From contig OY727103.1 of NCBI GenBank assembly GCA_963402885.1, positions 1,676,501 through 1,740,500 of the forward strand: a DNA stretch of 64,000 nucleotides. Reading direction: 5' to 3'. A model generated the notes under the pieces. The model did no database searches, was not told the origin of the DNA, and saw nothing but the letters and a program-made list of their open reading frames with translations. Shown one piece after another: positions 1-61,446 of the stretch; within the stretch, counting starts at the first letter, position 1, and every line of letters begins with the position of its first letter. Origin of the DNA: Antedon bifida. Taxonomy: Eukaryota > Echinodermata > Crinoidea > Comatulida > Antedonidae. Position numbers and translations under genes: made by a program.

Positions 1-313
1 CTAACTGTGTACATTTGCATACCTGTGACTGGTTGAAATTAAAAATGTACTTTTATTGGAAAGTCCTGAAGAGTAACGAAAAAGAATGAATGAAAGGAGA
101 ATGTTAAAAAAAACTAATTATACTATTAGAAAGGCTAAGATGTTTATATTTCTATTTACCTGAATGATTCCAACAGTCTTGCATCTTAGTACATCTGATT
201 TTCCCTGTGATTAGTTCCAACATCCTTGCATCGGTTTCCCCATGGTGCTACCTAAAAAGAGAAGTAAAAAAGAAAAATAATTATACCATTAGATAGGCTA
301 AGATGTTTCTTAC

Positions 314-361
314 CTGTGATTGGTTCCAACAGCCTTGCATTGGTATGTCCATAGCTAACAT
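314..361 (-). other. Representative 48-nt exon-like cassette of the array
   Basis: One clean example of the repeated cassette. On the minus strand it is bounded by a pyrimidine-rich acceptor ending TTTTTAG and a donor GTAAGAAAC. The body is a multiple of three and, if read in phase 1, gives residues like VSYGHTNARLLEPIT with no stop. Near-identical copies recur through the array, but 47-nt versions exist that would shift frame. I do not recognise the peptide. Confidence 0.5.
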
Positions 362-1170
362 CTAAAAAGAGAAGAAAGAAAAGAAAAAAGAATTATACTA
401 TTAGATAGACTAAGATGTTTCTTACCTGTAAAATAGACAATTAATTATAGCATAGGATATTATGTTTCTTACCTGTGATTGGTTGAAACAACATTGCATC
501 AGTATATCCATAGGTGCAATCTGAAAAATTAAATAGTAAGGAAAACTAACTATGTACATTTGCATACCTGTCATTGGTTGAAATTAAAATGTATTTTTTA
601 TAGGAAAGACCTGAAAAGTAAGGAAAAAAAATAAATGATAGGAGAATGTTAAAAAAAACTAATTATACCATTAGGTAGGCTAAGGTGTTTATATTTTTAT
701 TTACCTGAATGATTCCAACAGTCTTGCATCTGAGTACATCTGATTTTCCATGTGATTAGTTCCAACATCTTTGCATCGGTTTCCCCATTGTGCTACCTAA
801 AAATAGAAGTAAAAAAGAAAAATAATTATACTATTAGATAGACTAAGATGTTTCTTACCTTTAATTTTGTCCAATAGCCCTGCATTGGTATGTCCATTGG
901 TGCCATCTGAAAAGAAAAAGTATAAAGAAAATTAATTATACTATTAATAATATAACATAGGATATGATGTTTCTTACCTGTGATTGGTTCCAAATGCCTT
1001 GAACCTGTACATCCATAGTGCAATCTGAAAACAGTAACTTAATAGACAATTAATTATACCATTACATAGAATATGATGTTTCTTACCTGTAATTGGTTCC
1101 AAAAACTGCCTTGCATCTATCCATCCATATAGTATGACCTGAAAAGAGTACCTAAATAAAAACTATATTT

Positions 1171-1575
1171 TACCACCTTACACATTATATCAAATAAATT
1201 TACAAAAAAAATACCATGATTTAAAATGCATTGAAACTTAAACCTCTAGACCCTTAGCTACACTTAATAAATCTTAGCTACACACATACCTGCAGGCAAA
1301 ATGTACTATACCAAAATATAATGCCACCTTACACATTATATCAAACACATTTACAAAAAAATACCATGATTTAAAATGCACTGAAACTTAAACCTCTAGA
1401 CCCTTAGCTACACTTAATAAATCTTAGCTACCTGCAGACAAAGTTTACAATACCAATAATGCCACCTTACACATTATATCAAATAAATTTACCAAAAAAT
1501 ACCTTAATTTAAAATGCACTGAAACTTAAACTTGTAGACCCTTAGATACACTTAATATATCTTAGCTACACATAC
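1171..1575. repeat. ~150-bp AT-rich satellite block 1
   Basis: Tandem copies of a ~150-bp unit containing TACACATTATATCAAATAAA and CCTCTAGACCCTTAGCTAC, lying between groups of mini-exon cassettes. Several copies carry, on the minus strand, TTTGCCTGCAG directly followed by GTATGTGTG (junction at 1290/1289), an acceptor abutting a donor. Confidence 0.9.
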
Positions 1576-3523
1576 CTGTAGATGTGGCATTCTTACCTGT
1601 GATTGGTTCCAAAAATACCTGTGATTCACTTGCTTCCAACAGCCCTCCATTGACATTTCCATAGGTGAGATCTGGAATAATAGTAGTACCAAGTTTCTTG
1701 CATCTATACCTCCATATGCTATCTGAAAGAAGAAAGTAAAAAAAACACCCAACTAATTATACCATTTGATAGGCTAAGATGTTTCTTACCTGTGATTGGT
1801 CCAACAGTCTTGCATTGGTATGTCCATAACTTCTATTTAAAAAGAGAAAGTAAAATGAAAATGAACTTTGCTATTACTAATAAAAAAATGGTAATGTAGG
1901 CCTACATGTGATATGTTGCATTCTTACCTGTGATTCATTTGTTTGAAACAGTCCTCCACTGACAAGTCTATAGGTGATACCTGGAAAACCAAGTTTCTTG
2001 AATCTGTACCTGCATAATGATATCTGAAAGATAAAGAAAAAACAACTAATTATACCATTAGATAGGCTAAGATGTTTCTTACCTGTGATTGATCCAACAG
2101 CCTTGCCTTGGTATGTCCATAGCTGCTATCTGCAAAGAGAAAGTAAAAAAAAAGAACTATACCATTAGATTGGCTAAGATGTTTCTTACCTGTGATTGGT
2201 TCCAACAACCTTGCATTGGTATGTCCATAGCTGACATCTGAAAAGAGAAGAAAGAAAAATGAATTATATTATTAGATAGACTAAGATTGGTTGAAACAAC
2301 ATTGCATTGGTATATCCATAGGTGCAATCTGAAAAATTAAATAGTAAGGAAAACTAACTGTGTACATTTGCATACCTGTGACTGGTTGAAATTAAAAATG
2401 TACTTTTATTGGAAAGTCCTGAAGAGTAACGAAAAAGAATGAATGAAAGGAGAATGTTAAAAAAAACTAATTATACCATTAGAAAGGCTAAGATGTTTAT
2501 ATTTCTATTTACCTGAATGATTCCAACAGTCTTGCATCTGAGTACATCTGATTTTCCCTGTGATTAGTTCCAACATCCTTGCATCAGTTTCCCCATGGTG
2601 CTACCTAAAAAGAGAAGTAAAAAAGAAAAATAATTATACCATTAGATAGGCTAAGATGTTTCTTACCTGTGATTGGTTCCAACAGCCTTGCATTGGTATG
2701 TCCATAGCTAACATCTAAAAAGAGAAGAAAGACAAGAAAAAAGAATTATACTATTAGATAGACTAAGATGTTTCTTACCTGTAAAATAGACAATTAATTA
2801 TAGCATAGGATATTATGTTTCTTACCTGTGATTGGTTGAAACAACCTTGCATCAGTTATCCATAGGTGCAATCTGAAAAATTAAATAGTAAGGAAAACTA
2901 ACTATGTACATTTGCATACCTGTCATTGGTTGAAATTAAAATGTATTTTTTATAGGAAAGACCTGAAAAGTAAGGAAAAAGAATGAATGAAAGAAGAATG
3001 TTAAAAAAAACTAATTATACCATTAGATAAGCTAAGGTGTTTATATTTTTATTTACCTGAATGATTCCAACAGTCTTGCATCTGAGTACATCTGATTTTC
3101 CCTGTGATTAGTTCCAACATCCTTGCATCGGTTTCCCCATGCTGCTACCTAAAAAGAGAAGTAAAAAAGAAAAATGAATTATACTATTAGATAGACTAAG
3201 ATGTTTCTTACCTTTAATTTTGTCCAATAGCCCTGCATTGGTATGTCCATTGGTGCCATCTGAAAAGAAAAAGTATAAAGAAAATTAATTTTACTATTAA
3301 TAATATAACATAGGATATGATGTTTCTTACCTGTGATTGGTTCCAAATGCCTTGAACCTGTACATCCATAGTGCAATCTGAAAACAGTAACTTAATAGAC
3401 AATTAATTATACCATTACATAGAATATGATGCTTCTTACCTGTAATTGGTTCCAAAAACTGCCTTGCATCTATCCATCCATATAGTATGACCTGAAAAGA
3501 GTACCTAAATAAAAACTATATTT

Positions 3524-4219
3524 TACCACCTTACACATTATATCAAATAAATTTACCCAAAAAATACCATGATTTAAAATGCATTGAAACTTAAACCTCT
3601 AGACCCTTAGCTACACTTAATAAATCTTAGCTACACACATACCTGCAGGCAAAATGTACTATACCAAAATATAATGCCACCTTACACATTATATCAAACA
3701 CATTTACAAAAAAAGACCATGATTTAAAATGCATTGAAACTTAAACCTCTAGACCCTTAGCTACACTTAATAAATCTTAGCTGCCTGCAGACAAAGTTTA
3801 CAATACCAATAATGCCACCTTACACATTATATCAAATAAATTTACAAAAAAAATACCATGATTTAAAATGCATTGAAACTTAAACCTCTAGACCCTTAGC
3901 TACACTTAATAAATCTTAGCTACACACATACCTGCAGGCAAAATGTACTATACCAAAATATAATGCCACCTTACACATTATATCAAACACATTTACAAAA
4001 AAATACCATGATTTAAAATGCACTGAAACTTAAACCTCTAGACCCTTAGCTACACTTAATAAATCTTAGCTACCTGCAGACAAAGTTTACAATACCAATA
4101 ATGCCACCTTACACATTATATCAAATAAATTTACCAAAAAATACCTTAATTTAAAATGCACTGAAACTTAAACTTGTAGACCCTTAGATACACTTAATAT
4201 ATCTTAGCTACACATACCT
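3524..4219. repeat. ~150-bp satellite block 2 (expanded)
   Basis: Same unit as the block at 1171-1575 but longer. The extra copies here explain most of the 384-bp difference between the 2353- and 2737-bp half-repeats. Confidence 0.9.
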
Positions 4220-6260
4220 GTGGATGTGGCATTCTTACCTGTGACTGGTTTCAAATAACTGATATCTGAAAAGAGAAGGTAAAAAGAAAATGAATTATAC
4301 CATTAGATAGACTAAGATGTTTCTTACCTGTGATTGGTTCCAAAAATACCTGTGATTCACTTGGTTCCAACAGCCCTCCATTGACATTTACATAGGTGAG
4401 ATCTGGAATAATAGTAGTACCAAGTTTCTTGCATCTATACTTTCATATGCTATCTGAAAGAAGAAAGTAAGAAAAACACCCAACTAATTATACCATTTGA
4501 TAGGCTAAGATGTTTCTTACCTGTGATTGGTCCAACAGTCTTGCATTGGTATGTCCATAACTTCTATTTAAAAAGAGAAAGTAAAATGAAAATGAATTTT
4601 GCTATTACTAATAAAAAAAATGGTAATGTAGGCCTACATGTGATATGTTGCATTCTTACCTGTGATTCATTTGTTTGAAACAGTCCTCCACTGACAAGTC
4701 TATAGGTGATACCTGGAAAACCAAGTTTCTTGAATCTGTACGTACCTGCATAATGATATCTGAAAGATAAAGAAACAACAACTAATTATACCATTAGATA
4801 GGCTAAGATGTTTCTTACCTGTGATTGATCCAACAGCCTTGCCTTGGTATGTCCATAGCTGCTATCTGCAAAGAGAAAGTAAAAAAAAAAGAACTATACA
4901 ATTAGATTGGCTAAGATGTTTCTTACCTGTGATTGGTTCCAACAACCTTGCATTGGTATGTCCATAGCTGACATCTGAAAAGAGAAGAAAGAAAAATGAA
5001 TTATATTATTAGATAGACTAAGATTGGTTGAAACAACATTGCATCGGTATATCCACAGGTGCAATCTGAAAAATTAAATAGTAAGGAAAACTAACTGTGT
5101 ACATTTGCATACCTGTGACTGGTTGAAATTAAAAATGTACTTTTATTGGAAAGTCCTGAAGAGTAACGAAAAAGAATGAATGAAAGGAGAATGTTAAAAA
5201 AAACTAATTATACTATTAGAAAGGCTAAGATGTTTATATTTCTATTTACCTGAATGATTCCAACAGTCTTGCATCTTAGTACATCTGATTTTCCCTGTGA
5301 TTAGTTCCAACATCCTTGCATCGGTTTCCCCATGGTGCTACCTAAAAAGAGAAGTAAAAAAGAAAAATAATTATACCATTAGATAGGCTAAGATGTTTCT
5401 TACCTGTGATTGGTTCCAACAGCCTTGCATTGGTATGTCCATAGCTAACATCTAAAAAGAGAAGAAAGAAAAGAAAAAAGAATTATACTATTAGATAGAC
5501 TAAGATGTTTCTTACCTGTAAAATAGACAATTAATTATAGCATAGGATATTATGTTTCTTACCTGTGATTGGTTGAAACAACATTGCATCAGTATATCCA
5601 TAGGTGCAATCTGAAAAATTAAATAGTAAGGAAAACTAACTATGTACATTTGCATACCTGTCATTGGTTGAAATTAAAATGTATTTTTTATAGGAAAGAC
5701 CTGAAAAGTAAGGAAAAAGAATGAATGAAAGAAGAATGTTAAAAAAAACTAATTATACCATTAGATAAGCTAAGGTGTTTATATTTTTATTTACCTGAAT
5801 GATTCCAACAGTCTTGCATCTGAGTACATCTGATTTTCCATGTGATTAGTTCCAACATCTTTGCATCGGTTTCCCCATTGTGCTACCTAAAAATAGAAGT
5901 AAAAAAGAAAAATAATTATACTATTAGATAGACTAAGATGTTTCTTACCTTTAATTTTGTCCAATAGCCCTGCATTGGTATGTCCATTGGTGCCATCTGA
6001 AAAGAAAAAGTATAAAGAAAATTAATTATACTATTAATAATATAACATAGGATATGATGTTTCTTACCTGTGATTGGTTCCAAATGCCTTGAACCTGTAC
6101 ATCCATAGTGCAATCTGAAAACAGTAACTTAATAGACAATTAATTATACCATTACATAGAATATGATGTTTCTTACCTGTAATTGGTTCCAAAAACTGCC
6201 TTGCATCTATCCATCCATATAGTATGACCTGAAAAGAGTACCTAAATAAAAACTATATTT

Positions 6261-6665
6261 TACCACCTTACACATTATATCAAATAAATTTACAAAAAAA
6301 ATACCATGATTTAAAATGCATTGAAACTTAAACCTCTAGACCCTTAGCTACACTTAATAAATCTTAGCTACACACATACCTGCAGGCAAAATGTACTATA
6401 CCAAAATATAATGCCACCTTACACATTATATCAAACACATTTACAAAAAAATACCATGATTTAAAATGCACTGAAACTTAAACCTCTAGACCCTTAGCTA
6501 CACTTAATAAATCTTAGCTACCTGCAGACAAAGTTTACAATACCAATAATGCCACCTTACACATTATATCAAATAAATTTACCAAAAAATACCTTAATTT
6601 AAAATGCACTGAAACTTAAACTTGTAGACCCTTAGATACACTTAATATATCTTAGCTACACATAC
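6261..6665. repeat. ~150-bp satellite block 3
   Basis: Copy of the 1171-1575 block, 5090 bp downstream and almost identical to it. Confidence 0.9.
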
Positions 6666-8625
6666 CTGTAGATGTGGCATTCTTACCTGTGATTGGTTCC
6701 AAAAATACCTGTGATTCACTTGCTTCCAACAGCCCTCCATTGACATTTCCATAGGTGAGATCTGGAATAATAGTAGTACCAAGTTTCTTGCATCTATACC
6801 TCCATATGCTATCTGAAAGAAGAAAGTAAAAAAAACACCCAACTAATTATACCATTTGATAGGCTAAGATGTTTCTTACCTGTGATTGGTCCAACAGTCT
6901 TGCATTGGTATGTCCATAACTTCTATTTAAAAAGAGAAAGTAAAATGAAAATGAACTTTGCTATTACTAATAAAAAAATGGTAATGTAGGCCTACATGTG
7001 ATATGTTGCATTCTTACCTGTGATTCATTTGTTTGAAACAGTCCTCCACTGACAAGTCTATAGGTGATACCTGGAAAACCAAGTTTCTTGAATCTGTACC
7101 TGCATAATGATATCTGAAAGATAAAGAAAAAACAACTAATTATACCATTAGATAGGCTAAGATGTTTCTTACCTGTGATTGATCCAACAGCCTTGCCTTG
7201 GTATGTCCATAGCTGCTATCTGCAAAGAGAAAGTAAAAAAAAAGAACTATACCATTAGATTGGCTAAGATGTTTCTTACCTGTGATTGGTTCCAACAACC
7301 TTGCATTGGTATGTCCATAGCTGACATCTGAAAAGAGAAGAAAGAAAAATGAATTATATTATTAGATAGACTAAGATTGGTTGAAACAACATTGCATTGG
7401 TATATCCATAGGTGCAATCTGAAAAATTAAATAGTAAGGAAAACTAACTGTGTACATTTGCATACCTGTGACTGGTTGAAATTAAAAATGTACTTTTATT
7501 GGAAAGTCCTGAAGAGTAACGAAAAAGAATGAATGAAAGGAGAATGTTAAAAAAAACTAATTATACCATTAGAAAGGCTAAGATGTTTATATTTCTATTT
7601 ACCTGAATGATTCCAACAGTCTTGCATCTGAGTACATCTGATTTTCCCTGTGATTAGTTCCAACATCCTTGCATCAGTTTCCCCATGGTGCTACCTAAAA
7701 AGAGAAGTAAAAAAGAAAAATAATTATACCATTAGATAGGCTAAGATGTTTCTTACCTGTGATTGGTTCCAACAGCCTTGCATTGGTATGTCCATAGCTA
7801 ACATCTAAAAAGAGAAGAAAGACAAGAAAAAAGAATTATACTATTAGATAGACTAAGATGTTTCTTACCTGTAAAATAGACAATTAATTATAGCATAGGA
7901 TATTATGTTTCTTACCTGTGATTGGTTGAAACAACCTTGCATCAGTTATCCATAGGTGCAATCTGAAAAATTAAATAGTAAGGAAAACTAACTATGTACA
8001 TTTGCATACCTGTCATTGGTTGAAATTAAAATGTATTTTTTATAGGAAAGACCTGAAAAGTAAGGAAAAAGAATGAATGAAAGAAGAATGTTAAAAAAAA
8101 CTAATTATACCATTAGATAAGCTAAGGTGTTTATATTTTTATTTACCTGAATGATTCCAACAGTCTTGCATCTGAGTACATCTGATTTTCCCTGTGATTA
8201 GTTCCAACATCCTTGCATCGGTTTCCCCATGGTGCTACCTAAAAAGAGAAGTAAAAAAGAAAAAAGAATTATACTATTAGATAGACTAAGATGTTTCTTA
8301 CCTTTAATTTTGTCCAATAGCCCTGCATTGGTATGTCCATTGGTGCCATCTGAAAAGAAAAAGTATAAAGAAAATTAATTTTACTATTAATAATATAACA
8401 TAGGATATGATGTTTCTTACCTGTGATTGGTTCCAAATGCCTTGAACCTGTACATCCATAGTGCAATCTGAAAACAGTAACTTAATAGACAATTAATTAT
8501 ACCATTACATAGAATATGATGCTTCTTACCTGTAATTGGTTCCAAAAACTGCCTTGCATCTATCCATCCATATAGTATGACCTGAAAAGAGTACCTAAAT
8601 AAAAACTATATTTTACCATTACATA

Positions 8626-9772
8626 CCACCTTACACATTATATCAAATAAGTTTACCAAAAAATACCATTATTTGAAATGCATTGAAACTTAAACCTCTA
8701 GACCCTTAGCTACACTTAATATATCTTAGCTTCACACATACCTGCAGGCAAAATGTACTACACCAAAATATAATGCCACCTTACACATTATATCAAATAA
8801 ATTTACAAAAAAAATACCATGATTTAAAATGCATTGAAACTTAAACCTCTAGACCCTTAGCTACACTTAAAATATCTTAGCTACACACATACCTGCAGGC
8901 AAAATGTACTAAACCAAAATATAATGCCACCTTACACATTATATCAAATACATTTACAAAAAAATACCTTAATTTAAAATGCATTGAAACTTAAACCTCT
9001 AGACCCTTAGCTACACTTAATAAATCTTAGCTACCTGCAGACAAAGTTTACAATACCAATAATGCCACCTTACACATATCATATAAACTTACCAAAAAAA
9101 TACACCATGATTTAAAATGCATTGAAACTTAAACCTCTAGACCCTTGCTACACTTAATAAATCTTAGCTACCTGCAGACAAAGTTTACAATACCAATAAT
9201 GCCACCTTACACATTATATCAAATACATTTACAAAAAAATTACCATGATTTAAAATGCATTGAAACTTAAACCTCTAGACCCTTAGCTACACTTAAAATA
9301 TCTTAGCTACACACATACCTGCAGGCAAAATGTACTATACCAAAATATAATGCCACCTTACACATTATATTAAACACATTTACAAAAAAATACCATGATT
9401 TAAAATGCATTGAAACTTAAACCTCTAGACCCTTAGCTACACTTAATAAATCTTAGCTACACACATACCTGCAGGCAAAATGTAGTATACCAAAATATAA
9501 TGCCACCTTACACATTATATCAAACACATTTACAAAAAAATACCTTAATTTAAAATGCATTGAAACTTAAACCTCTAGACCCTTAGCTACACTTAATAAA
9601 TCTTAGCTACACATACCTACAGGTAAAATGTACTATACCAAAATATAATGCCACCTTACACATTATATCAAACACATTTACAAAAAAATACCATGATTTA
9701 AAATGCATTGAAACTTAAACCTCTAGACCCTTAGCTACACTTAATATATCTTAGCTACACACATACCTGCAG
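8626..9772. repeat. ~150-bp satellite block 4 (terminal, longest)
   Basis: About seven to eight consecutive units of the same satellite end the array. Single-base differences and small indels separate the copies. The AG/GTATGT juxtaposition on the minus strand (plus-strand ACATACCTGCAGG) is present in most units; one unit has ACATACCTACAGG instead, which keeps the minus-strand GT but changes the bases before it. Confidence 0.9.
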
Positions 9773-9799
9773 GAACAAGTTTATAATATAAACTTCTAC

Positions 9800-10078
9800 C
9801 TTCCAACAGCCATGCCTCACCATCATGTATTTTTATCGGCAAGACCTGAAAAGTAATGAAAAAGAAGTAAAACATGCATTTTTACTTACCTATGGCTGGC
9901 CCAACAGCTTTGCATTTGTCTCTATATCTGCTATCTGAAAAAAGAAAGTATAAAGAAAATGAATTATACTATTAGATAGACTAAGATGCTTCTTACCTGT
10001 GATTGGTTCCAACAGCCTTAATTGCATCTGTACACCTGATGCTCTTTGATTGGTTTTCTTGTAATGTCAAAACTATAT
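9800..10078 (-). other. Three single-copy exon-like cassettes flanking the array
   Basis: Three minus-strand cassettes resemble the array units but lie outside the repeat. 10078-9997 (82 nt) has acceptor CTTTTCAG and donor GTAAGAAGC, and ends in the array core GGAACCAATCACAG. 9934-9890 (45 nt) has acceptor CTTTTTTCAG, donor GTAAGTAAA and an open phase-1 reading. 9845-9800 (46 nt) has acceptor ACTTTTCAG and donor GTAGAAG. They are plausible founders of the array or its first downstream exons. No homology is recognised. Confidence 0.4.
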
Positions 10079-11288
10079 CTGAAAAGATAAGAAACATGGT
10101 TATATATGAACTTATTTCTATTTCTTAGTTTAAGGATTACACTATTTTAATTATTTGTTCTAAGGTTCCCCAAATTCATTTTGCATGCTTTCTGACACCT
10201 TTTACGTTTTGCACAATATAAACAAGTAATGTGTTAGTATACAAGTAACATTCATATCTGGGTCTGCATTAACTAATAGTTGCTGATGTCCCAAGAAACC
10301 TAAATTACCTGAAAAATAAAAGAAAGTGCAGCAGGGAAAAAATATTCTTAATTAATTTACAGTTAACATACATTCATAAACAAGAAAAACACATAACAAA
10401 ACATCTATTTGTGTAAACGTAAAAGGTTGCAGAAGTGCGTGCAAAAACAAAAATTATCCAAAAATCTTGAAAGTAACAAGAAGTATGAACACCAATGGTT
10501 ATGGGATTTCTACTGAGAAATAAAAGAGTATAACAAAAATATTACTTATCTGTCATAAGTGTTGAGAAGTACAGCATGAATGATGATACCAGGCAGCGAT
10601 CTAGAATTAAAACCTGAAAAAAAAAAAAAAAATTGAAAAAAAAAATTAAATAAATAAAATAAAAACTAATATAAAAAAAATTATGTTAAATAATATATTC
10701 GTAATATTTAAATTATTGTAATCTGTGCTTTAATCTATTAAATTCAACAATAAGTTTCGACGTATACAAATTCTTCGTTCGAAAACAGAGCCCGTACCAC
10801 CAAGAAGTTCTGTTCCCGCGAGTAGATTGGGCCGAGTAGAAAATCAGACAACACCTGTCACGTCACAGTTTACCGGGAACCAGTGTACGCGCTAGACAGA
10901 CGATAATGTTCTTCGCGGTGATTTACTTTTCAGAAAACCTATGCAAATAAATAGGCTCAGTTTTATTCGCTAACAATCGATAAAATGAACTGTATTGATG
11001 AAATCAGTGTTGTAGGCCTAATAATCAATGTGTTGAAATTGAAAATTGGTAATTTAGTAGGCAGAAGTAGCCTCAATTACAACTTTATATGAGTCGACGG
11101 TGGTGTGTGTGTGTGGTGAGGCGGGGAAAAAGGTGGTTCATAAAATCAATATTTTCTGTATAAAAATGTGACATTAAATAAGCTAAATAACAAAATTATT
11201 AGCTAAGGGCATACTAGAAGTCGATATGATAATCGTGAACTTGAAGATATTTTGGATTAAGATATTTTCAAACCAATAAAATACTTAC
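10079..11288. other. Intergenic or intronic stretch without a recognised gene
   Basis: Mostly AT-rich, with an A-rich tract at 10615-10680. Around 10745-10930 it becomes richer in CpG. If the candidate minus-strand exon at 11289-11400 is real, this is its first intron. Acceptor-like pyrimidine-AG sites occur near 10306 and 10611 on the minus strand, but I see no GT donor paired with them. Confidence 0.4.
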
Positions 11289-11400
11289 CTACTCTCGGCC
11301 TACTCTACCTGTCTCGTCTCTTCTTCTTATTCTTCTTCTTCGATGTTTCTTCGCCGCCGTCAATTTACGAAATGGCAACGTAAGTCGGTGGCGGGACGAA
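11289..11400 (-). other. Candidate non-coding first exon of the minus-strand array transcript
   Basis: Minus-strand sequence rich in GAAGAAG ends in CCGAGAGTAG followed by the strong donor GTAAGTATT at 11288. No ATG lies in the stretch. It is preceded by a CpG-containing stretch with an octamer and three CCAAT boxes, so a transcription start near 11400 is plausible. The upstream boundary is a guess. Confidence 0.35.
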
Positions 11401-11408
11401 AACTAAAT

Positions 11409-11546
11409 ATGCAAATTTGTTGATGAACTTATTCTAACTGTGATTGGCTAATTCGTCGTCATCCTCGTTGATGTGAATCGTTGATTGGTTACTCAATTAT
11501 TACTGTTGCCCCCGCGTATTCTGAACTTCCTCAGAACAACGATTGG
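11409..11546 (-). promoter_or_regulatory. Octamer plus three CCAAT boxes
   Basis: ATGCAAAT lies at 11409-11416. ATTGG, which is CCAAT on the minus strand, lies at 11443-11447, 11484-11488 and 11542-11546. Spacings are 41 and 58 bp. All three share orientation and sit just upstream of the candidate minus-strand first exon. Octamer (POU) and CCAAT (NF-Y) elements are classical promoter motifs; promoter activity here is inferred. Confidence 0.4.
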
Positions 11547-11599
11547 TAATTCAGAAACACGTGTCTGCTACTAAGCTCCGCCTCGGAAGTTTTAAGAAC

Positions 11600-13853
11600 T
11601 TTCAATATTGTAGAGGGCGCTACACATGTGGTAAGGTTGCCAGGATCATACAATAAAATATTATGTTGTTATTATGTGTCAGGACCTCAAAACGCCTGGA
11701 CAAACAAGTTATCAAAATTACTTCTTCTATTAGCTTAGGGTGCCTAAACTATTGAATTACGATAGGTGGCGGTATTATTTTGGGTAAGATTATTTCCAAG
11801 TTAATAAGAAAACCGACGAATCATTCGTAATCAATCTTAATTAATAAAAGATTAATTTACTGAAATTTAAAGAAGATTCTTATTAATAATAATTTGCTGA
11901 ATGGATAAACCGCAAAACTAGGCCTTCACTGCCCAAAATGAATACTTTTTACAAATACAAGGCAACAGGAACACTCAAGCTTTAATAATATTATGGGACA
12001 CTACAACAATTTTATAATATTAGTATAGTGTGTTTTAATTAATTAAAGTAGTTGAAATTAATCTTCTACCATTAATAGGTTACTCTAACAAGATGGTATG
12101 AATATTATATTTTAACAATAAACAGAATTCGTAATTTAAAAATATAAAATATTAACTTGAAAGATACTTTTCATAGACTAATAAATCTATTATAGGTCTT
12201 TTTGTATCATATTATGAATTAACTCAGTATCTCTCTATTAATTTCAATCATATTTGTATCCGTTTTTGTCGACAGGACCACAATGCAAAACAAGTATATT
12301 TATTTATTTCTTGATTGTGTATAATCCTGTATAAATATGTTGATAAATAAAAAAAAATAAATATTTGTATATGTTATATTATTATTTGAATACGAGATTA
12401 GACCGTCAGGGTAGATTTTTATGTTGGAATTCTATAAATGCAATATTGTTCATATCATATTTCCTTCCTTATCCAACGAAACACAAACAAACATCCACAC
12501 AATGTATAAAGTCTACACTATCAAATTGTATGTGACAAAAAAATGTGATGTGCCCATATATGGACATGATGATGTCATATCAATACCATATTTGGGCATA
12601 TCACTACCAAATTTGGGCAAATCACACTTGTTTGTCAAACTAGTTTGATAGAGTAGACAGAGCTTTACCGCGGCTCTCTTAATTTCACGATATTTTGTAT
12701 TTATTTACTAAATTTAGAGTGTGTATAATCTATTTTTCTAACTCTTGGTTATTTTTTTTATTATTCGTTGTGACAAAATAAATAGTTAATAAACAGTAAC
12801 AATTTTGTATAACGCTATCTGCCTTTTATAATGATTTATTTTAATTGACAATTTATACTGACACTTTTATCATTTGAAATACATAAAGCCCACATTTTTT
12901 TTACCCTAATCTTGAACCGATGTCACGTGCGAGATGATCATGTGGTATATACCTACCGTTTATAAGTAACTGCGCTTCTATACTCAATTACCAATTTTTA
13001 TTTACTCCTACCAGTGTCCGGCAAAATGCTAAACATTAAATTAAACTTGCATATGGTGACGTGATCCGTTGAGTTATCTGACCAATGCCTGTTTTACCCT
13101 AGGACTGTAGACTTTGCAGAAATTCAGAGAATTCTACAGAATAAAATGGCGTTACGACAGAAAGAATTTAATATCCCCGTGCAGACCACCTGTATTCAAT
13201 TTTAAGAAACAGGAATATCGAATATTAAAGAGATTGAGTCCATTTTGAAGATCGGTGGGTTAGGACGAATAATAATCTTATATAACCGATTTGATTTTAT
13301 TAGTATTTTCAGTTACATTATATATTATAGGTTAACAATGTTCAAAGAAATCATGGTAACTGCCATTTATATGCATTAAATAATTTTACCGTGAAAATAA
13401 ATACTGTAGTACATGTACTATAACTGTACGCTATCATATACTGTTCAGGCAGCCTTTAAATGGTAGAGCGCCCTCTCTAATGGTGCAATCCAGCGTAAAC
13501 ATTTTAGTCCAGTTCAGAGTCCCTAAGCTACCAAAATATTGAATAAATTTTGGTATGGACAATAGAAGTAACAAAAAAAACCACTACAAAATGTTTAGGT
13601 AATTCTGAAATACATATTTCCGTGTGTATATGAATATATATTTTATATTTTATTTTGATAATGTTATTTTTTAAGCAAATAATGTGTGTATTTTTGCTCC
13701 CCTGGCGAACACTGATTCTGGCAATCATTTTTTCCAAGATACTAGTATCGGATTGGAGGAAAGTTTGTAGTGTCAAGTCTGTGATAGATACCCCTTATCT
13801 CTACTTTTAATTTACAAAATTAGGCTTATTATTACAATTTTGCACCGTAGAAG
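11600..13853. other. Upstream region of REDIC1, no other gene seen
   Basis: AT-rich DNA between the minus-strand promoter-like stretch and the REDIC1 start codon. It contains one copy of the AGCTCTGTC inverted-repeat element (about 12507-12667). I see no open frame with splice support elsewhere. Confidence 0.4.
12507..12667. mobile_element. MITE-like inverted-repeat element, AGCTCTGTC family, copy 1
   Basis: Ends are inverted repeats (GTCTACACTATCAAA on the left, GTTTGATAGAGTAGACAGAG on the right). The interior is itself palindromic, pairing TGTGATGTGCCCATATATGG with a CCATATTTGGGCA-type half around ATGATGATGTCAT. Related copies lie at 31412, 49963, 50688 and 57618, and a deletion form at 45026. 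Flanking TTA/TAA suggests, weakly, PIF/Harbinger-type target duplication. Confidence 0.75.
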
Positions 13854-16800: not shown

Positions 16801-18856
16801 ATAGGAAGATGATTGACAGGTGATTATAGCTTATACCGAGGAAAAGTAAAATTACAATTACTTTTACTCGTCCCTGCTTTTTATGCCTTATTAGTTTCCC
16901 TTTTTTGATCTAATTTAGTCACAACAAGTCACCAATTACAATAAAATGATGCACGCAAATCAGTCTTATGTAATGCTTAATTAACTCTATTTTTTAAATG
17001 ACAAATGAAAAATACCTAATGTTTATCTAATTTCAGGTTTTATCGCTAGATGAAGAAATAATGAGTACATATGCAACACAGCAGACTGATGATACAGCAT
17101 TAGGTATGAAACGTTCAGTATACCAACAATTTTAGATCTTGTCATAATTATAAAAATTTTTTTAAACCCTAAAACCCATAGCGATATAATGAATTAAAAA
17201 AAGGAGATTGTAATAAATGTTAGATTGGATTAAAAAGGCGTGTTGTAAAAAACACTTTGATTAAAGGTGAATCTCAAATAGAATTGGGAAGATTGTTTAT
17301 GGCATGGTTTAGGCATGGACCTATACATTATCTAATGTATAGGTCCATGATTTAGGTTCTACAGCATTGATCACCACTTCTATCACCCAATTGTGAGGTT
17401 CAGATCACATGATTAACATGAAATGTTAGTACTAAATGCATTCTGGGATTTGTTTATGGATAAGTTAACATTAAAGCGTATCGATTGCCCACTATGAATG
17501 ATGAATAATGTCAAAACTTTTAAATTTACCAAGGCTACTTTTACTTTCTTCTTTCCAATTAATCGTCTCATATTATCTAATTATAGGTATGTTCCTTATT
17601 ATTGTTTTATTTTATCAAATAGATAAAGTTTTCTTAAATCTATCCAGCACTCAATCATCACATGATTATCAGCATGAATGTTTTTCAGTCGACAACAATC
17701 AACAACTGGTAAGAACACTCTATCAGCCCTTGTATTAGGAAATCTTGGAATAATTTTGGGGCAGATTTGAAATAAAAACAATTATTAGGAAAACTTTTTT
17801 CTAATATTTGTATTGTATCTGTATCTACTTTATTAGTGATTATAATATTTGTTTATATTTTAGGAACAATATGTAAATAATAAACTAGCAAAAGATGAAA
17901 CTGATGTCAGCAGTAGGATCTCAGCAGAACCTAAGATTGTTAAGGGTCACAATTCAACTGAAGATACAGGACCTCAGCTTAGCGAACCTAATCTTATTCA
18001 GACTACACCTAATGTTACACAGACTACACCTAATGTTACACAGACTACACATAATGGTGCACAGACTACACATAATGTTACACAGAATGCACCTAATGTT
18101 ACACAGAATGCACCTAATGTTACACAGACTACACCTAATGTTACACAGAATACACCTAATGTTACACAGACTACACCTAATGTTATTCAGATTACACCTA
18201 ATCTTAATCAGACTAAATATAATCTTATTCAGACTAAATCTAATGTTACACAGACTACACCTAATGGTACAAAAACTACACTTAATGTTACACAGACTAC
18301 ACTTAATGGTACAAAAACTACACTTAATGTTACACAGACTACACCCAATCTTATTCAGACTACATCTAATCTTAATCAGACTAAATCTAATCTTATTCAG
18401 GCTAAATTTAATCTTATTCAGTCTACACATTTGCAAGAAACAAACAAAAGCTTGAAATCATCAGGAACTCCACAGAATGCATTAAATGACTTTACTAAAC
18501 AAACTGTTAACGTTAGTAGAACGTCACATGGCATTGATTGTACCACTCAGACTACAGGTATCCATTGTGGCACATGCAAATGCCTATGTACACCTGGTTT
18601 AGAACACACTCAAAAGCTGCAAACACTGGACGGTCAAGGCAATCAAGATGACAATCATACGGACATTTTGATAGAAAAAGATGTAAATAAATGTGACCAC
18701 CAAAATATTATGACTAATGAGAGTGGAGTGTTAGAAATTCTAAAAAAATCTCATTTAGGTTTAGTTGGTAGCAATATGGACGACAACATTTGTCAGAAAA
18801 TACAATGTAATGAAAGAATAAGATATTCTCTTCGTCCAAGAAATGTAAACAAATAA
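13854..18856 (+). CDS. REDIC1: REDIC1 (C12orf40) ortholog, meiotic crossover regulator
   Basis: Ten exons: 13854-13876, 14159-14201, 14367-14511, 14865-15030, 15287-15422, 15694-16346, 16568-16643, 17037-17103, 17623-17708, 17864-18856. They join in phase to 795 residues. The tiny first exon reads MNWVGGI, followed by a basic stretch and EYFEKKRYMNQLNRVF, matching the conserved N-terminus of vertebrate REDIC1; a second conserved block is VELPTMSPIETPSKLDLND. In mammals the protein supports class I crossover formation in meiosis by acting at recombination intermediates; the same nuclear role is inferred here. The middle is low-complexity. The last exon carries 21 near-perfect heptapeptides of the type PNVTQTT (17990-18430) and ends RYSLRPRNVNK. 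The repeat is not known to me from vertebrate orthologs and is probably lineage-specific. The start choice rests on the N-terminal match and splice phase. Confidence 0.88.
17314..17349. repeat. Perfect 36-bp inverted repeat in a REDIC1 intron
   Basis: Two 17-bp arms (CATGGACCTATACATTA and its exact complement) separated by TC. It lies in the intron between 17104 and 17622. No coding role. Confidence 0.9.
17990..18430 (+). repeat. 21-bp coding minisatellite in REDIC1
   Basis: Twenty-one copies of a 21-bp unit like CCTAATGTTACACAGACTACA encode heptapeptides PNVTQTT and variants (HNVTQNA, PNGTKTT, SNLNQTK). Because the unit is a multiple of three, copy-number change preserves the frame. The long open frames on the opposite strand here are shadows of the repeat. 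Confidence 0.95.
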
Positions 18857-21626: not shown

Positions 21627-24600
21627 ATGCAATCGATGACTTTATATTTTGTTTTATTTTACGTTCTTACGTTAGCATACAGTGTGGCGGCGAAGGGTAA
21701 GTATTCTTTTTATTTATGTGTTTTTAAAAAATCATACCGGATGTCCCATAAAGCTAAAACAGCTTCATTTTAATGGATTCTAGTCATTTCTGGTCTGGAT
21801 CTGGTAGCTTCTGTACAATCGCCATCATAATAGGATCTCGTACAGGTTGCGCTCCCATGGGCATAGCTGGTTGCAATTAAGTTGCAATCTTAGCGATGCT
21901 GTCGATGTCTAGTGCGTCCAGTTGAGTTTTGAAATTAGTTAGAGTTGGTGCACATCAAGTTGAGTCGGGTAGAGCGTTCCCTTTACAATTTATTTAAATA
22001 TAATTGAGTGTTTATTAATCCCTATTCAAAATACAACACCACCGGTACTTACATGCCAACCTGTCGTTAATATTTCTACAAATCCTGGAAGCGACAAGGG
22101 AACGGTTGATTTTATATCATTAGGCCTAGTATCAGGAACAGACGATCAGTCAAATATTGTATCAATTAAACCAAGACTTATAATAGATTATCCGATTGGA
22201 AAAAGTGAACAAATTTTCACAGGAACTGATCTATCTGGAAATAGCGAGTCATGTACAATTGAAATAAACGTGGAAGGTGAGTAAAATAAATGCAAAAAGT
22301 TAGATAGGAAAGTCATTTCTTTTAAAAGGCTGATAATGATGATACTGATGATGATGATGACTATAATAATAATAATAATAATGATGATGATGATAATGGT
22401 AATAATGATGATGAAAATGATGATGATTAAATAAAAGAAAAGAAAGAAAAGACATAATAATGATGATGATTTTGGAAATGTGCTATGTAAATCGAAACGT
22501 TATTGTTATTACTTTTTACAATAATAGATAATGAGGCTCCTGTATTGAATTGCCCCGGTGACATCCAGGACTTTTTACAAGATGGACCAACACGACACTA
22601 TGATCTTGGTGACAGTTTCAGTGTAACTGATAACTCAGGAGAAGTTCCAGCCATCAATCCTGATCCTAAAGTGTTGTTTCCTCTTGATCTCGGAGTTGGC
22701 GTGCTGTTGGCTTTTTTTGAAGCAATGGACTCAGCAGGAAATGAAGGTACCTGTACATTTACAATTGAAGTTATAGGTAAGTAGCAGAGTCCACGTAAAA
22801 ATCCAAAGTTATTAAAGAGCAAACTTTGCATACAGAGGGAAAGGCCTACTCGATTCAAAGCTTTTGTTTAGTAAAATGTATCGCGTTTAGAAACCAAACT
22901 TACAGCTCACTTTGCAAATAAGTATCGATTAATCAATTTACAGATCTAACACCACCTGCACTTTCATGTCCACCTGCTGGTCATTTCACTACCGATCATG
23001 GAAGCGCCGTAGTTACCATTGACTATTCAGATGAAATAAACGCAACTGATAACTCGGGACAAGTAGACGTAAGGCCTCGTCCAAATGACGTATTCCCCAT
23101 GGATTTTCCGATTGGACAAACTGAAAAGAATTTTAGAGCAAAGGACCCGAGTGAAAATTCAGTCACTTGTTTGGTGTTAATAACTGTTGAAGGTGAACAT
23201 AAATAGATACGTAAAAAAAAAAAAAAAAAATAACCAACAAAATAAAGAATTGTTCTACCGAATGTTTATGTGTATATACTTTGATTACTTTTGTTGTTTT
23301 TTACTGCCATTTTTTGCAATTTCTCAATTTGACCTTTGACTTATTTTATTATTTATTACTTATTTAAACTCTGATAAACAAATCATTAATATCAATTAAT
23401 AGATAACGAGCCACCATCTTGTCCACCTGGTAGTAGTAATTTTACTACCGATCCTGGAAGCGACAGAGCTACGGTTGATTTCTTAACTACATTTTACCCA
23501 GCTGATAATTCCGGACAAGTTTTTGGTAATTTTACAACAATGGTTGGTTTTTATCCAATTGGAAAAAGCGTGGAAACTTTAGTTGTAACTGACCCAAGTG
23601 GAAACACTGTCGAGTGTACTGTTCAAATAAACGTCCGAGGTGAGTGATTAAAATAATATATCGGATAAAGAAAGTAGGAGCAAAAATTACGTCGAATGAC
23701 GATGATAAGACGTGCTTCCGATATATCTTTCCAGTGTGGTACGAATATGATATCCTTTAACAGTAACTGCCTCACCAGTAAGAATTGTTCATTATTAATA
23801 TTATTTGATTGATTTTAATACTTAATGTTAAATTTTGATTAATAAAACTGTACATTAATAGATACAGAGCAGCCTGTATTGAATTGTCCTGGGGACATGT
23901 TGACACCCCTTGAAGAGAATGCAACAGTGAATATCCAGTTGCCGATGATAAATGCAAATGACAACACAAACGACACCCTTATCATTCGTCCTCATCCTGA
24001 AGATATATTCCCTGTTAATCTTGGAGTTGGAGACTTTTATTTTACCTTCACAGCAAACGACTCGTCAGGAAATGTCGGTAGCTGTGCATTTCAAATTATA
24101 ATTTTAGGTAACTCAGCCTGTAGACCAATTTATTCGTGTGAATTGAAAGCGTTAACTAAATGCGCATGCGTATATAATTTACATATCCATATTATACTTT
24201 CTGTAATAAACGCGATAAATTGCCTCGATTAGCACGACTACATTCGCCTCGTGGAAAACAGGCTTTCTTTAATATCTATTTTGTTGATTGATTGTACGGT
24301 TCTGTAAATCATATGTACCAAACACCATAACATGATTCCCTCTACTTTATATTATCTTACAAATGTACGTTCTCTAACCAGGATGTAGTTCTAAAACAAT
24401 GCAATATACATTTTTATTAATTTGTATTCAAGATATAACACCGCCTGAACTTGACTGTCCACCTATCTATACTGTTTATACCAATCCTGGAAGTGACAAG
24501 GGCACAGTTGATCTATCGAATTTAATAAAAGCAACGGATAATTCAGGAGAAGTGGAAATTCACCAAACTCTCCGAGCGAATTATACAATTGGAAGAAGGG

Positions 24601-33500: not shown

Positions 33501-36500
33501 TTGAACAACAAAATTGTAAATGGAAAGTTGTTACATAGCATGCATCATATTGTACTACATATTCAGCTGCAGATTTTTAGCGATTTTTTACTAATAAATT
33601 CTTTTTATATACCTTCAATGATCTTACAGCCTTTTCTTATGTTTAAGTTTTTTTAATTACTATTATTTGGTCTTACTGTAAACATTGCAATGTATAAATC
33701 TTTTATTTATCTTATCTTAATTAATAGACAAAGAACCACCTTCGTGTCCATCACCTGGTAGTGGGAATTTCACTACCAATATTGGAAGAAGCTATGCTAC
33801 GATTGATATCTCAACTACATTTTACGCAATCGATAATGCAGGAGAGGTTTTTAGTAATGTTACGGTTGGTTTACAGATTTATCCAATTGGGAAAAGTATT
33901 GAAACTTTCTCTGCAAGTGACTCAAGCGGTAACAATGTGACGTGTACAGTTGAAATAAACGTTCGAGGTGAGTGGTAGCATTTATTTGATGAGTTCTTTT
34001 ACCTGTTAAACGTTCCTTCAGTCGTTTGGCTGCTAATATGTTGTTAGTAACACTAACAAATAAATAATCTATCTTTGAATAGATGAAGAACCACCGGCTT
34101 GTCCACCTTTTATTAGTAATTTCAATAATGATCCCGGAAGTGACATAGCTACGATTTTCTTTCCAACTGTATTTCACCCAACGGATAATTCTGGACAAGT
34201 TTTTGGTAATTTTTCAACAATGGTTGGGTTTTATCCAATTGGAAAACGTGAGGAAACTTTAGTTGTAACTGACCCAAGTGGAAACAGTGTGGAGTGTACT
34301 GTTGAAATAAACGTCCGAGGTGAGTGATTAAAATAACGGATATCGGATAATAAAAATAGGAGCAAAACATTACGTCGAATGACGATGATAAGACGTACTT
34401 CCGATATATCTTTCCAGTGTAGTACGAATATGATATCCTTTAACAGCAACTGCCTCACCAGTAAGAATTGTTCATTATTAATATTATTTGATTGATTTTA
34501 ATACTTAATGTTAAATTTTGATTAATAAAACTGTACATTAATAGATACAGAGCAGCCTGTATTGAATTGTCCTGGGGACATGTTGACACCCCTTGAAGAG
34601 AATGCAACAGTGAATATCCAGTTGCCGATGATAAATGCAAATGACAACACAAACGACACCCTTATCATTCGTCCTCATCCTGAAGATATATTTCCCGTTA
34701 ATCTTGGAGTTGGAGACTTTTATTTTACCTTCACAGCAAACGACTCGTCAGGAAATGTCGGTAGCTGTGCATTTCAAATTATAATTTTAGGTAACTCAGC
34801 CTGTAGACCAATTTATTCGTGTGAATTGAAAGCGTTAACTAAATGCGCATGCGTATATAATTTACATATCCATATTATACTTTCTGTAATAAACGCGATA
34901 AATTGCCTCGATTAGCACGACTACATTCGCCTCGTGGAAAACAGGCTTTCTTTAATATCGATTTTGTTGATTGATTGTACGGTTCTGTAAATCATATGTA
35001 CCAAACACCATAACATGATGCCCTCTACTTTATATTATCTTACAAATGTACGTTCTCTAACCAGGATGTAGTTCTAAAACAATGCAATATACATTTTTAT
35101 TAATTTGTATTCAAGATATAACACCGCCTGAACTTGACTGTCCATCTATCTATACTGTTTATACCAATCCTGGAAGTGACAAGGGCACAGTTGATCTATC
35201 GAATTTAATAAAAGCAATGGATAATTCTGGAGAAGTGGAAATTCACCAAACTCTCCGAGCAAATTATTCAATTGGAAGAAGGGTGGAAACTTACACAGCA
35301 AGTGATCCGAGTGGAAACAACATGGAGTGTACAGTTGAAATTTACGTTCTAGGTAAGTGATTATAGAAATGAACTAAACGTTTATTACATAATTTAATGT
35401 TGACGATTAATATAATAATGATGAACATCCAACAGAAAAAACCCAGAGAATGTACAGTGTTGAGGTGAAAGTTTAAATAAAGAAGTTAATTCAAATTAAA
35501 TGCAACTTCGCTAAAATAATTGCATACTTTTGTTGTCGGTTGATTTCGGGTTATTGTCGGTTGATTTCGGTTTGTTGTAGTGTATAAAGTCTTGATCCAA
35601 TCTTCTATAGTATTTCCTGATCTGTTATATTCCAGAGTCGGGCTGTGGGAACGAATGCTTGCATATTCATGAGTTTTAATTATGTTGCGAGGATTAAACA
35701 TATTAAGCTAATCAAACTAATCACGTCAATAAAAATGTCACAAACCTTTTCTTTTTAACTGCGGCTTCTTTCTTCTACTATTATTATTAGATACGGAACC
35801 ACCTGTACTTTACTGTCCACCTGGAGGTAATTTCACTACCGATCCTGGAAGCGATGTTGCTACGGTTAATTTTACAACTACATTATACGCAACTGATAAT
35901 TCCGGACACGTTTTTGGTAATTTTACTACTGGATTGTATCCAATTGGAAAAAGTGTGAAAAACTTCTTTGCAATTGACCCGAGTGGAAACAGTGTGAAGT
36001 GTAAAGTTGAAATAGATGTCAAAGGTCAGTGAATAATTGTCAAAATATATTTCAACATAATTAGCATGAAAATGATGTAATGTCATCTATGAGAGTTAGC
36101 ACACATGATAATGATGATTATAAACTACAATATTGGGTCTTAGGGGATGATTACGTCATCGTTTTAAGAATGGAAATCTGAAATAACAATATTATTATTA
36201 TTGGAAAGAGTAACGCAGGTGGGAATATATAAGTCATATTACAGTATGTTTATAATATAACAGATACAGAAGACCCTGTGATAAATTGTCCATCTACCAA
36301 AATGACGATTTATCCAAATACCGATTCTTTACTGGCATCTCTAAACTACTCAGAAATACTAACAGCAAGGGACAACTCGATGGAAATAATCTTCTCCCCA
36401 AATCCAAATGCAACATTTTATGGAGGAATTGGTATTGGAGAAAAGGTGTACAACTTCACAGTAGCTGATTTATCGGGAAACATAGATTTCTGTGAATTTC

Positions 36501-51950: not shown

Positions 51951-52711
51951 ACCGTTATACACATATGTAGCCAACAATTTAAACAAAATTAGGTGTCATT
52001 TAACTACAAAAAGAGGTTTAACATGATGACTTTCCCAATCCACCACGTACGTAGCTCCGAACACAATGGAAATTTCCAAGGCGATTTATTATGAAACCGT
52101 GCTTAGCCAAGCGTTTCACACATTGAGGTATATTCAGAGCGTCATTCTGACGATGGAGCATTCTCTACTTCTCTATGGGGCGCCATTTATGCCTTTATTT
52201 ACTTCAGAAATAGAAATAGTACTACTGTAACTGGTCCAGTGAAATTTGGCACCGGTGAAGCACAGTGATATAGAATCGATATAAGTCACTAATTTAAATA
52301 TATTTCGTATGTTAATATACTGTGCTCAAGTGGACCCAATTTGGCAAAAGGGGAGCACAGTGATATAAAATAGAAATAAAGTCAATAAATTTGATTGCAG
52401 TATCTCATTCGTATCTATAATACACTGAGTTCAATGGACCCAATTTGGCACAAGCGGAGCACATGGATATAAAATAAAAAACAAATTACTAAAACGTTAT
52501 ATCTCATTATAATAGTTAACCCATCTTTGCGCACAGTAAAATAATCACATACAAAAACAAAATATTTCAAACCTGGTATATAATTATGTTCAATTTCCGT
52601 TACTTCATCCGTAATGATGTTAATTTTGCCTGACATTTACAACCCTCAAAATATCTCTCTTTCAAAAATAAAAGAAAAACAATATTCATTATTTTCGATT
52701 AAAAAAAAAAG

Positions 52712-55649: not shown

Positions 55650-55909
55650 GATCAGTTAGCTCAGTCGTCTGAGCGTCGTGTTAACACACGTATGTCGTGG
55701 GTTCGATTCCCACGCTGGTCGGTGGAATAGAGTTAAAGGCATGCGGCCACTGTGTTTGGGGTTCACAGAATTATACGTCCCCCTTTCCACCACACATCAT
55801 GAGGCGACAACATCAATGCATCTGGTGATGTGCTGGAAACGACCCCAAAAGGCTGTGGCAGGGCCTTAGTGCTGAGGCAGGGAGAGCACATTTAACATCT
55901 TTTTTTTTA
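55650..55909 (+). repeat. tRNA-headed SINE, copy 2
   Basis: As copy 1 but with an intact acceptor and T arm: GATCAGT pairs with GCTGGTC (with G-T wobbles) and GTGGG pairs with CCCAC. The anticodon arm reads CGTGTTAACACACG and still lacks a normal 7-nt loop, so I do not call a functional tRNA. Confidence 0.7.
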
Positions 55910-61322: not shown

Positions 61323-61446
61323 AGATTAAGGTATTACAAAGAACTTACTCACTTTTAGTTTTTTTTATGCACCAGTTATGTTCAATGATAAGGGGAATTA
61401 TTCTGTGTAACACATATCGACAGAAATAGAACTGAACTGTCCACAA

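What the first reader, a model, noticed from the sequence alone, without database searches (positions are those of the whole stretch)
1..9775. Tandem array of dozens of mini-exon cassettes that keep their splice sites
Seen: on the minus strand almost every ~45-48-nt monomer is bracketed by a pyrimidine-AG acceptor and a GTAAG-type donor, repeated about twenty times per half-unit over at least 9.8 kb. Cassette bodies vary in length (43-48 nt) and some carry stops in all frames, yet the splice consensus is kept. Inference: this could be a transcript with very many small non-coding exons, offering huge combinatorial splicing, or a splicing sponge. The alternative is plain unequal crossing-over of an old exon.
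Basis: partly seen in the sequence, partly recalled or inferred. Interest (0 to 1): 0.8.

Follow-up and report, generated by a model that had tools for sequence, protein, structure and literature searches.

The report
Noncoding genes of tandem mini-exons
An echinoderm-like genome appears to carry a small family of long noncoding RNA genes, each built from dozens to a couple of hundred head-to-tail copies of a roughly 45-letter exon whose splice signals have been kept by selection although the exons do not seem to encode protein.

Summary
The window holds the 5' part of a roughly 45-kb minus-strand gene: promoter-like block with three CCAAT boxes, leader exons, then mini-exon cassettes. Four paralogues with the same leader, cassette and 3' element lie within about 2 Mb on contig C15. 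The five loci hold 558 exon bodies, 53 in the window. In 225 distinct C15 units the acceptor AG never changed and the donor GT changed 3 times (22.8 expected at the unit's mean rate); the acceptor T-run and a branch-site-like block are slow too, while the rest of the intron drifts. A related orphan array on C1, without leader or 3' element, has a GT donor in only 8 of 16 units. The array exons look noncoding: mostly 2 mod 3 long, stop-making changes not depleted (16 of 73, 16.2 expected). Best reading: transcribed and spliced repeat-RNA genes, amplified by unequal crossing-over, with selection on splicing. There is no RNA evidence; constraint on the exon body depends on the tree used; function is inferred. 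Closest known analogue: the Firre lncRNA with its repeated exons.

The parts
11423..11771 (-). promoter-like block of the array gene, homologous in all five loci; CCAAT boxes on the minus strand at 11443-11447, 11484-11488 and 11542-11546; an octamer-like ATTTGCAT lies just downstream at 11409-11416
   Evidence: leader alignment; C16 vs C15 consensus 292 identical, 55 mismatched, 22 gapped columns; motif positions read; motif names recalled
11289..11360 (-). putative exon 1; donor GTAAGT directly left of 11289; its 5' end is a guess
   Evidence: alignment of five loci; start inferred
10546..10613 (-). leader exon 2, donor GTAATA
10243..10308 (-). leader exon 3, donor GTATAC
   Evidence: sequence and five-locus alignment
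9997..10078 (-). leader exon 4 fused to the first mini-exon body (82 nt)
9890..9934 (-). 45-nt mini-exon
158..8573 (-). mini-exon cassettes: 51 of the window's 53 exon bodies (bodies 40-46 nt; exons mostly 43-52 nt, plus fused doubles), e.g. 314-361, 859-906, 2083-2129, 5404-5451, 7757-7804, 8302-8349
158..245 (-). example of a fused double exon (two bodies): inner donor and acceptor lost, outer acceptor and outer donor GTAAAT kept; 8 such pairs in the window
421..430 (-). example of a zero-length cassette, TTTTACAG|GTAAGAAAC; 14 in the C16 locus, 0 in the four C15 loci
8626..9773 (-). block of the second (~150-bp) repeat carrying CTGCAG|GTATGTG, juxtaposed acceptor and donor; further blocks at 1173-1582, 3526-4220 and 6263-6672
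1..9321 (-). higher-order repeat of 5,090 bp (1-5090 and 5091-9321; half-units 2,353 and 2,737 bp), 97.8% identical over 4,250 columns
   Evidence: half-unit lengths positions

Best explanation
A family of long noncoding RNA genes. Each is transcribed from a conserved CCAAT-box promoter through leader exons into one or more tandem arrays of a 41-48-nt exon plus a ~62-nt intron, and ends in a shared 3' module. The spliceosome should join the cassettes into a long RNA made of repeated copies of one exon (inferred). Arrays grow and shrink by unequal crossing-over (inferred from the higher-order repeat). Units with broken splice signals are removed by selection, so splicing of the cassettes matters (inferred from rates). 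Most likely the mature tandem-repeat RNA is the product, acting as a multivalent scaffold or retention RNA in the manner of Firre's repeated exons (inference, weakest step).
For: Five loci share promoter-like block, leader exons and array. 374 genome-wide matches of one exon pattern equal the 374 in these five loci. Immediate AG and GT at 329 of 341 C15 exon bodies; of the other 12, 8 keep sites at shifted positions, 3 lost the donor, 1 is a 3' exon (classes read by eye). Parsimony changes on 225 distinct C15 units: acceptor AG 0 and 0, donor GT 3 and 0; 3 seen vs 22.8 expected at the unit mean (Poisson P 2.8e-7; also 3 on an intron-only tree). Donor +1..+8 2.12 changes per site, acceptor -7..-1 2.00, block 29-39 nt before the next exon 3.00, rest of intron 8.22, each P 0.001 or less. 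314 of 337 unit spacings are 100-109 nt, none near 200, so degraded units were not skipped inside runs. Indel patterns: exon 13 (22 units) in 41 nt, intron 38 (92 units) in 62 nt. No depletion of stops. The orphan C1 array without leader has lost donors (8 of 16 GT).
Against: No RNA data of any kind. No spliced retrocopy junction found in the genome with two junction patterns. The exon body is slower than the rest of the intron on the whole-unit tree (5.54 vs 8.22, P 0.0019) but not on an intron-only tree (7.88 vs 6.16, P 0.37); comparisons of representative units between families are weak (exon 38/41 vs intron 50/62, P 0.15; 35/41 vs 45/67, P 0.043; 35/41 vs 44/64, P 0.066; the C16 and C1 units were picked by hand). 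A spliced trimer does not fold better than shuffles (z 0.32). In the C16 locus only 141 of 217 bodies have both sites immediately adjacent, many of the rest being fused doubles. C1 units are probably one recently amplified block, so its losses may be a single event. Parsimony counts assume an independence that concerted evolution weakens.
Confidence: 0.6

Rival explanations
1. A minisatellite that happened to capture an exon with its flanks; unequal crossing-over and conversion keep it homogeneous and nothing is spliced.
For: Higher-order repeats 97.8% identical; nearest relatives of most distinct C15 units lie in the same locus (151 of 225 in the same locus only); no RNA data; the C1 array behaves this way.
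Against: Homogenisation acts on all columns alike, yet AG/GT, the T-run, donor +3..+8 and the branch-like block are slow while neighbours drift; leader and promoter-like block are kept in all five loci.
Confidence: 0.13
2. The arrays encode a repetitive protein: the exon consensus is open in all three frames and concatenated exons give ATG-ORFs of 251-791 codons.
For: No stop in any frame of the consensus; ORFs of 251, 387, 791 and 314 codons in loci a-d; the ORF of locus c exceeds order shuffles (P 0.016).
Against: 312 of 341 C15 exon bodies are 2 mod 3 long, so nearly every exon changes frame; 16 of 73 observed exon variants make a stop, 16.2 expected, permutation P 0.56; ORF length is within order shuffles in 3 of 4 loci (P 0.90, 0.23, 0.59); fused, 27-nt and zero-length exons coexist in C16.
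Confidence: 0.07
3. The DNA, not the RNA, is the functional part: each cassette carries a CCAAT-type motif (GAACCAATCACAG), making an array of binding sites or an enhancer.
For: The motif is well kept in the exon and a similar one occurs in the promoter-like block (AGCCAATCACAG). Identity of the motif is recalled, not tested.
Against: It does not explain slow AG, GT, T-run and branch-like block, nor the exon boundary lying exactly at the motif's end; degraded donors next to a nearly intact motif in C1.
Confidence: 0.08
4. Splicing sponge or combinatorial splicing: the array exists to load spliceosomes or to generate isoform diversity, the exon sequence being irrelevant.
For: Splice signals are the slowest sites, exon body constraint is weaker and tree-dependent; zero-length AG|GT sites also persist in C16.
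Against: No known mechanism needs exons of one sequence; exon length and several exon stretches are kept. Not testable without RNA.
Confidence: 0.1

Closest known systems
Firre lncRNA of mammals (repeating RNA domain, RRD)
   Same: Noncoding gene in which a local repeat forms many of the exons; PMC4820808 (12 passages read) gives 7 of 13 human and 11 of 23 mouse exons
   Different: Far fewer repeat exons, and the introns there carry other local repeats; here exon plus short intron is itself the tandem unit, 61-217 bodies per locus, five loci. No sequence relation was tested
Schistosome micro-exon genes (MEGs)
   Same: Genes made mainly of very short exons
   Different: MEG exons are mostly multiples of three, 6-81 bp, 10-20 per gene, introns of about 100 to almost 5000 bp, protein-coding (PMC10526429, 12 passages read); here exon bodies are mostly 2 mod 3, noncoding, C15 introns about 62 nt
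snoRNA host genes such as the SNORD116/SNORD115 host (recalled)
   Same: Tandem exon-intron units of a noncoding transcript
   Different: No snoRNA hit in the window or in five 10-kb stretches of the loci; intron interiors drift; one candidate RNA-like element per gene, at the 3' end
Recursive splicing ratchet points of Drosophila
   Same: Juxtaposed acceptor and donor, as in TTTTACAG|GTAAGAAAC and CTGCAG|GTATGTG here
   Different: Known ones sit in long introns (PMC8605326, search-listing abstract and outline); here they are decayed or repeat-borne cassettes and their use is untested

Membership tests
Multi-exon noncoding RNA gene | promoter and leader outside the repeat | tested here: met
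   promoter-like block plus leader exons homologous in 5 of 5 loci; promoter activity itself not tested
Multi-exon noncoding RNA gene | splice signals under constraint | tested here: met
   (C15 units)
Multi-exon noncoding RNA gene | no coding constraint | tested here: met
   16 of 73 variants make stops vs 16.2 expected; 312 of 341 exon bodies 2 mod 3; one exception to the ORF-order test, locus c, P 0.016
Multi-exon noncoding RNA gene | transcription and splicing | not testable with these tools
   no RNA reads; no spliced retrocopies found with two junction patterns
Firre-type repeat-exon lncRNA | repeat confined to exons, nuclear retention via hnRNPU | not testable with these tools
   here exon and intron repeat together; localisation and binding need experiments
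Micro-exon gene (schistosome type) | protein-coding exons mostly divisible by three | tested here: not met
   2 of 341 C15 exon bodies are 0 mod 3
snoRNA host gene | known snoRNA in introns | tested here: not met
   no snoRNA hit in the window at gathering threshold or at E<=1 in L012, L017, L021, L024, L025; the other fetched stretches of the loci were not searched

The most novel reading that the evidence does not exclude
A new class of gene in which a complete exon-intron cassette is the tandemly amplified and selected unit: five noncoding genes with 61 to 217 similar mini-exon bodies each, whose splicing builds a long repeat RNA of about 41-48 nt period, with zero-length cassettes as by-products.
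Probability: 0.3. Interest if true: 0.85.

Novelty: new variant of a known kind. Interest (0 to 1): 0.62.

Why it matters
It would be a natural system for asking how the spliceosome joins dozens to hundreds of nearly identical, very short exons in order, and how selection keeps splice sites in a tandem array that can otherwise grow and shrink freely. It would also show how a repeat RNA can be made from spliced cassettes instead of a satellite transcript. The C1 orphan array gives a built-in comparison of arrays with and without the promoter.

Tried and rejected
Protein-coding reading: not supported by frame, stop and ORF-order tests, except that locus c has one ORF longer than order shuffles (P 0.016).

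RNA structure of the spliced repeat: no signal (z 0.32). Known RNA families: none in the array part of the window (whose only hit is a tRNA at 55650-55721); in five 10-kb stretches of the loci only a 5S rRNA, two tRNAs and two sub-threshold miRNA matches, none identified as part of an array. Spliced retrocopies as proof of splicing: none with two junction patterns.

Recursive splice sites in the 150-bp repeat: of 67 anchored units in C16, 53 have AG|GT, 10 AG|GC and 4 neither; in the four C15 loci only 39 of 65 have AG|GT. Kept as a possibility only.

Host-gene or ribozyme reading of the 80-nt 3' element: interleaved helices pair in 94.8% of cells, but 128 of 500 shuffles reach that, and covariation is not above shuffles (119 of 500). 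Of 26 places, 25 were in hand; the truncated copies L044 and L049 were left out, and the weakest place was not fetched, so 23 were aligned. No HDV or other Rfam family hit it in the five stretches searched.

Surroundings of other copies of the 80-nt element: 6 of the other 21 examined. Five of the six have tandem repeats of about 300 bp or more within 6 kb upstream, the sixth (L055) one of 71 bp; only L050 resembles a 3' exon of the array genes, and none matches the cassette. One fragment of a copy had no Pfam hit.

Genome identity: COX1 codons (AAA at Asn positions, ATA mostly at Ile, TGA=Trp, AGR read as Ser) fit the echinoderm/flatworm code (recalled); a HYR domain lies in the window.

Literature: 10 searches. 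Those for noncoding tandem exon arrays listed nothing matching in what was shown (one search showed 15 of 43); the library holds open-licence papers only.
Full report
What is there. The window is G000:C16:1676501-1740500 of a 315.6-Mb, 27-contig genome. COX1 on contig C27 uses AAA at several positions where beef COX1 has Asn and ATA mostly where it has Ile, with TGA as Trp; this fits the echinoderm/flatworm mitochondrial code (name recalled), and the window holds a HYR domain. I therefore treat it as an echinoderm; the species is unknown.

Checking the observation. On the minus strand of 1-9775 the cassette pattern (pyrimidine tract, YAG, 20-75 nt, GTRAG) occurs 25 times, 0 times on the plus strand, against a shuffle mean of 3.3 and maximum of 11 in 200 shuffles. 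An exon-body model finds 53 bodies at 158-10041 after one chance hit at 40540 is dropped. 34 of 53 have both sites immediately adjacent, 3 of them with a weak GTATT donor. The other 19 are 16 bodies that form 8 fused double exons, each with one outer acceptor and one outer donor, and 3 bodies whose donor was deleted. There are 14 bodies per half-unit. The 5,090-bp higher-order repeat is 97.8% identical between its two copies, so copies are not independent.

Beyond the coordinates. The cassettes continue about 32 kb to the left, to C16:1,644,679: 217 exon bodies in the C16 locus, 141 of them with both sites immediately adjacent. To the right the gene has leader exons at 9997-10078, 10243-10308 and 10546-10613 and a first exon ending at 11289, preceded by a promoter-like block with three CCAAT boxes. 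Four more loci on C15 (near 18.75, 20.06, 20.60 and 20.76 Mb) carry the same leader (alignment of all five) and arrays of a 41-nt exon plus ~62-nt intron, with 61, 103, 72 and 105 exon bodies. A model of the whole unit gives 609 hits over the five loci, 257 of them in C16. One 20-base exon pattern gives 374 matches in the whole genome, all 374 in these five loci. A second pattern gives 329 matches, 315 in the five loci, 13 in an array on C1 and 1 elsewhere.

Leader conservation. C16 against the C15 consensus, gaps left out: exons 1-4 80.4, 81.2, 90.5 and 87.1% (the first includes the start region), introns 1-3 77.6, 76.0 and 83.3%, promoter-like block 84.1%. Exons are somewhat better kept, not strikingly so.

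Are the splice sites kept by selection? From 322 C15 units (225 distinct) I aligned the full 103-column unit. 314 of 337 neighbour spacings fall at 100-109 nt and none near 200, so choosing units by the exon body did not skip degraded ones inside runs; 13 gaps of 400 nt or more were not searched for relics. On a tree of the whole unit there are 587 parsimony changes (5.7 per column). The acceptor A and G have 0 and 0, the donor G and T 3 and 0; 3 changes on four sites against 22.8 expected, Poisson P 2.8e-7. On a tree built from intron interiors alone the same 3 changes are found. Donor +1..+8 has 2.12 changes per site, acceptor -7..-1 2.00, and a block (AATGGTATAAT) 29-39 nt before the next exon 3.00, against 8.22 in the rest of the intron (one-sided P 0.0005, 0.001, 0.0007). 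The block lies where a branch site would be (inference). The three exceptions are two ATAAG donors in locus b and one altered unit at the start of locus d. Over all 341 bodies, 329 have AG and GT exactly at the projected ends; of the other 12, 8 keep sites at shifted positions, 3 are the lost donors and 1 is a 3' exon (read by eye).

An internal comparison. The C1 array (16 units) has neither the leader within the 9.5 kb upstream nor the 80-nt 3' element in the 18 kb fetched. It has a GT donor in 8 of 16 units; 7 have AT and 1 is destroyed. C15 has 222 of 225 distinct units with GT (Fisher P 7.7e-9; the C1 units were not reduced to distinct ones). The C1 AT units look like one amplified block, so this may be a single loss; it is an illustration, not a replicated control.

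Noncoding. The exon consensus is open in all three frames, which makes long ORFs easy, but 312 of 341 C15 exon bodies are 2 mod 3 long and frames rotate. Of 73 distinct exon substitutions seen, 16 create a stop; 16.2 are expected from the same spectrum (P 0.56; computed on consensus columns). 17 of 58, 34 of 96, 17 of 71 and 37 of 104 spliceable exons carry a stop in some frame. Longest ORFs are within order-shuffled exons in three of four loci; locus c is the exception (791 codons, P 0.016).

How strong is the case for the exon body? Mixed. On the whole-unit tree the exon is slower than the rest of the intron (5.54 vs 8.22 per site, P 0.0019), and it has fewer indel patterns (13 in 22 units over 41 nt, against 38 in 92 units over 62 nt). 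On the intron-only tree it is not slower (7.88 vs 6.16, P 0.37). Representative units of the three array families, C16 and C1 picked by hand, give exon vs intron P 0.15, 0.043 and 0.066. A spliced trimer has no unusual fold. So splicing is under constraint; a sequence-specific RNA function is plausible but not shown.

Mechanism. I commit to: RNA polymerase II transcription from the shared promoter, splicing of the cassettes, and a long repeat RNA as product; arrays change size by unequal crossing-over. The shown steps are anatomy, homology and site rates. Transcription, splicing and function are inferred. The nearest working analogue is Firre, where a repeat forms 7 of 13 human and 11 of 23 mouse exons and acts in nuclear retention (PMC4820808, passages read). 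Membership in that family is not claimed. Schistosome MEGs differ in being coding and mostly in multiples of three (PMC10526429, passages read).

Side findings. Each of the five genes carries near its 3' end, apparently in the last intron (read by eye), an ~80-nt element with 26 matches in the genome; its interleaved complementary stretches are nearly invariant, so covariation cannot test them. The C16 array also holds 14 zero-length cassettes (TTTTACAG|GTAAGAAAC), and 53 of 67 units of the second repeat there have AG|GT, against 39 of 65 in C15; whether they act as recursive splice sites is open.

Verdict. Real, strongly non-random, and best explained as a family of noncoding mini-exon array genes. 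I call it a new variant of a known kind (repeat-exon lncRNA genes) because function and expression are unproven.

Noticed in passing
C16:1643436-1643517 (L012:6936-7017, minus); L017:8684-8766; L021:4531-4611; L024:3270-3351; L025:5841-5920 (minus): An ~80-nt element at the 3' end of all five array genes, with 26 matches genome-wide, some near-identical on different contigs. Its complementary stretches CCUCGCU/AGCGAGG and GAUCAUCA/UGAUGAUC interleave (pseudoknot topology as in HDV-like ribozymes, recalled), but covariation is not above shuffles and no Rfam family matched it.
   Followed up: partly
L050-L055 (6 kb upstream of six other copies of the 80-nt element): Five of six have tandem repeats of about 300 bp or more upstream of the element, e.g. 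57-bp and 74-bp arrays shared by L053 (C13) and L054 (C15), and 31-bp arrays in L051 and L052.
   Followed up: partly
L056:9552 to L057:1368 (C1:14325552-14327368): Orphan array of 16 units without leader or 3' element nearby; 7 units have ATAAA instead of a GT donor.
   Followed up: yes
window 23846-24232 and 34529-34915: Two ORFs with identical translation containing a HYR domain, about 10.7 kb apart, pointing to a recent segmental duplication.
   Followed up: no
window 51522-51995, minus: Exon of a sugar transporter/MFS gene (Pfam Sugar_tr 2.5e-17).
   Followed up: no
window 61446-62198: 94-bp tandem repeat, 8 copies; also a 21-bp array at 17986-18395 lying inside an open frame.
   Followed up: no
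L022-L024 (C15 locus c): Four exon-pattern matches lie on the opposite strand to the other 67 of the locus, suggesting a local inversion.
   Followed up: no
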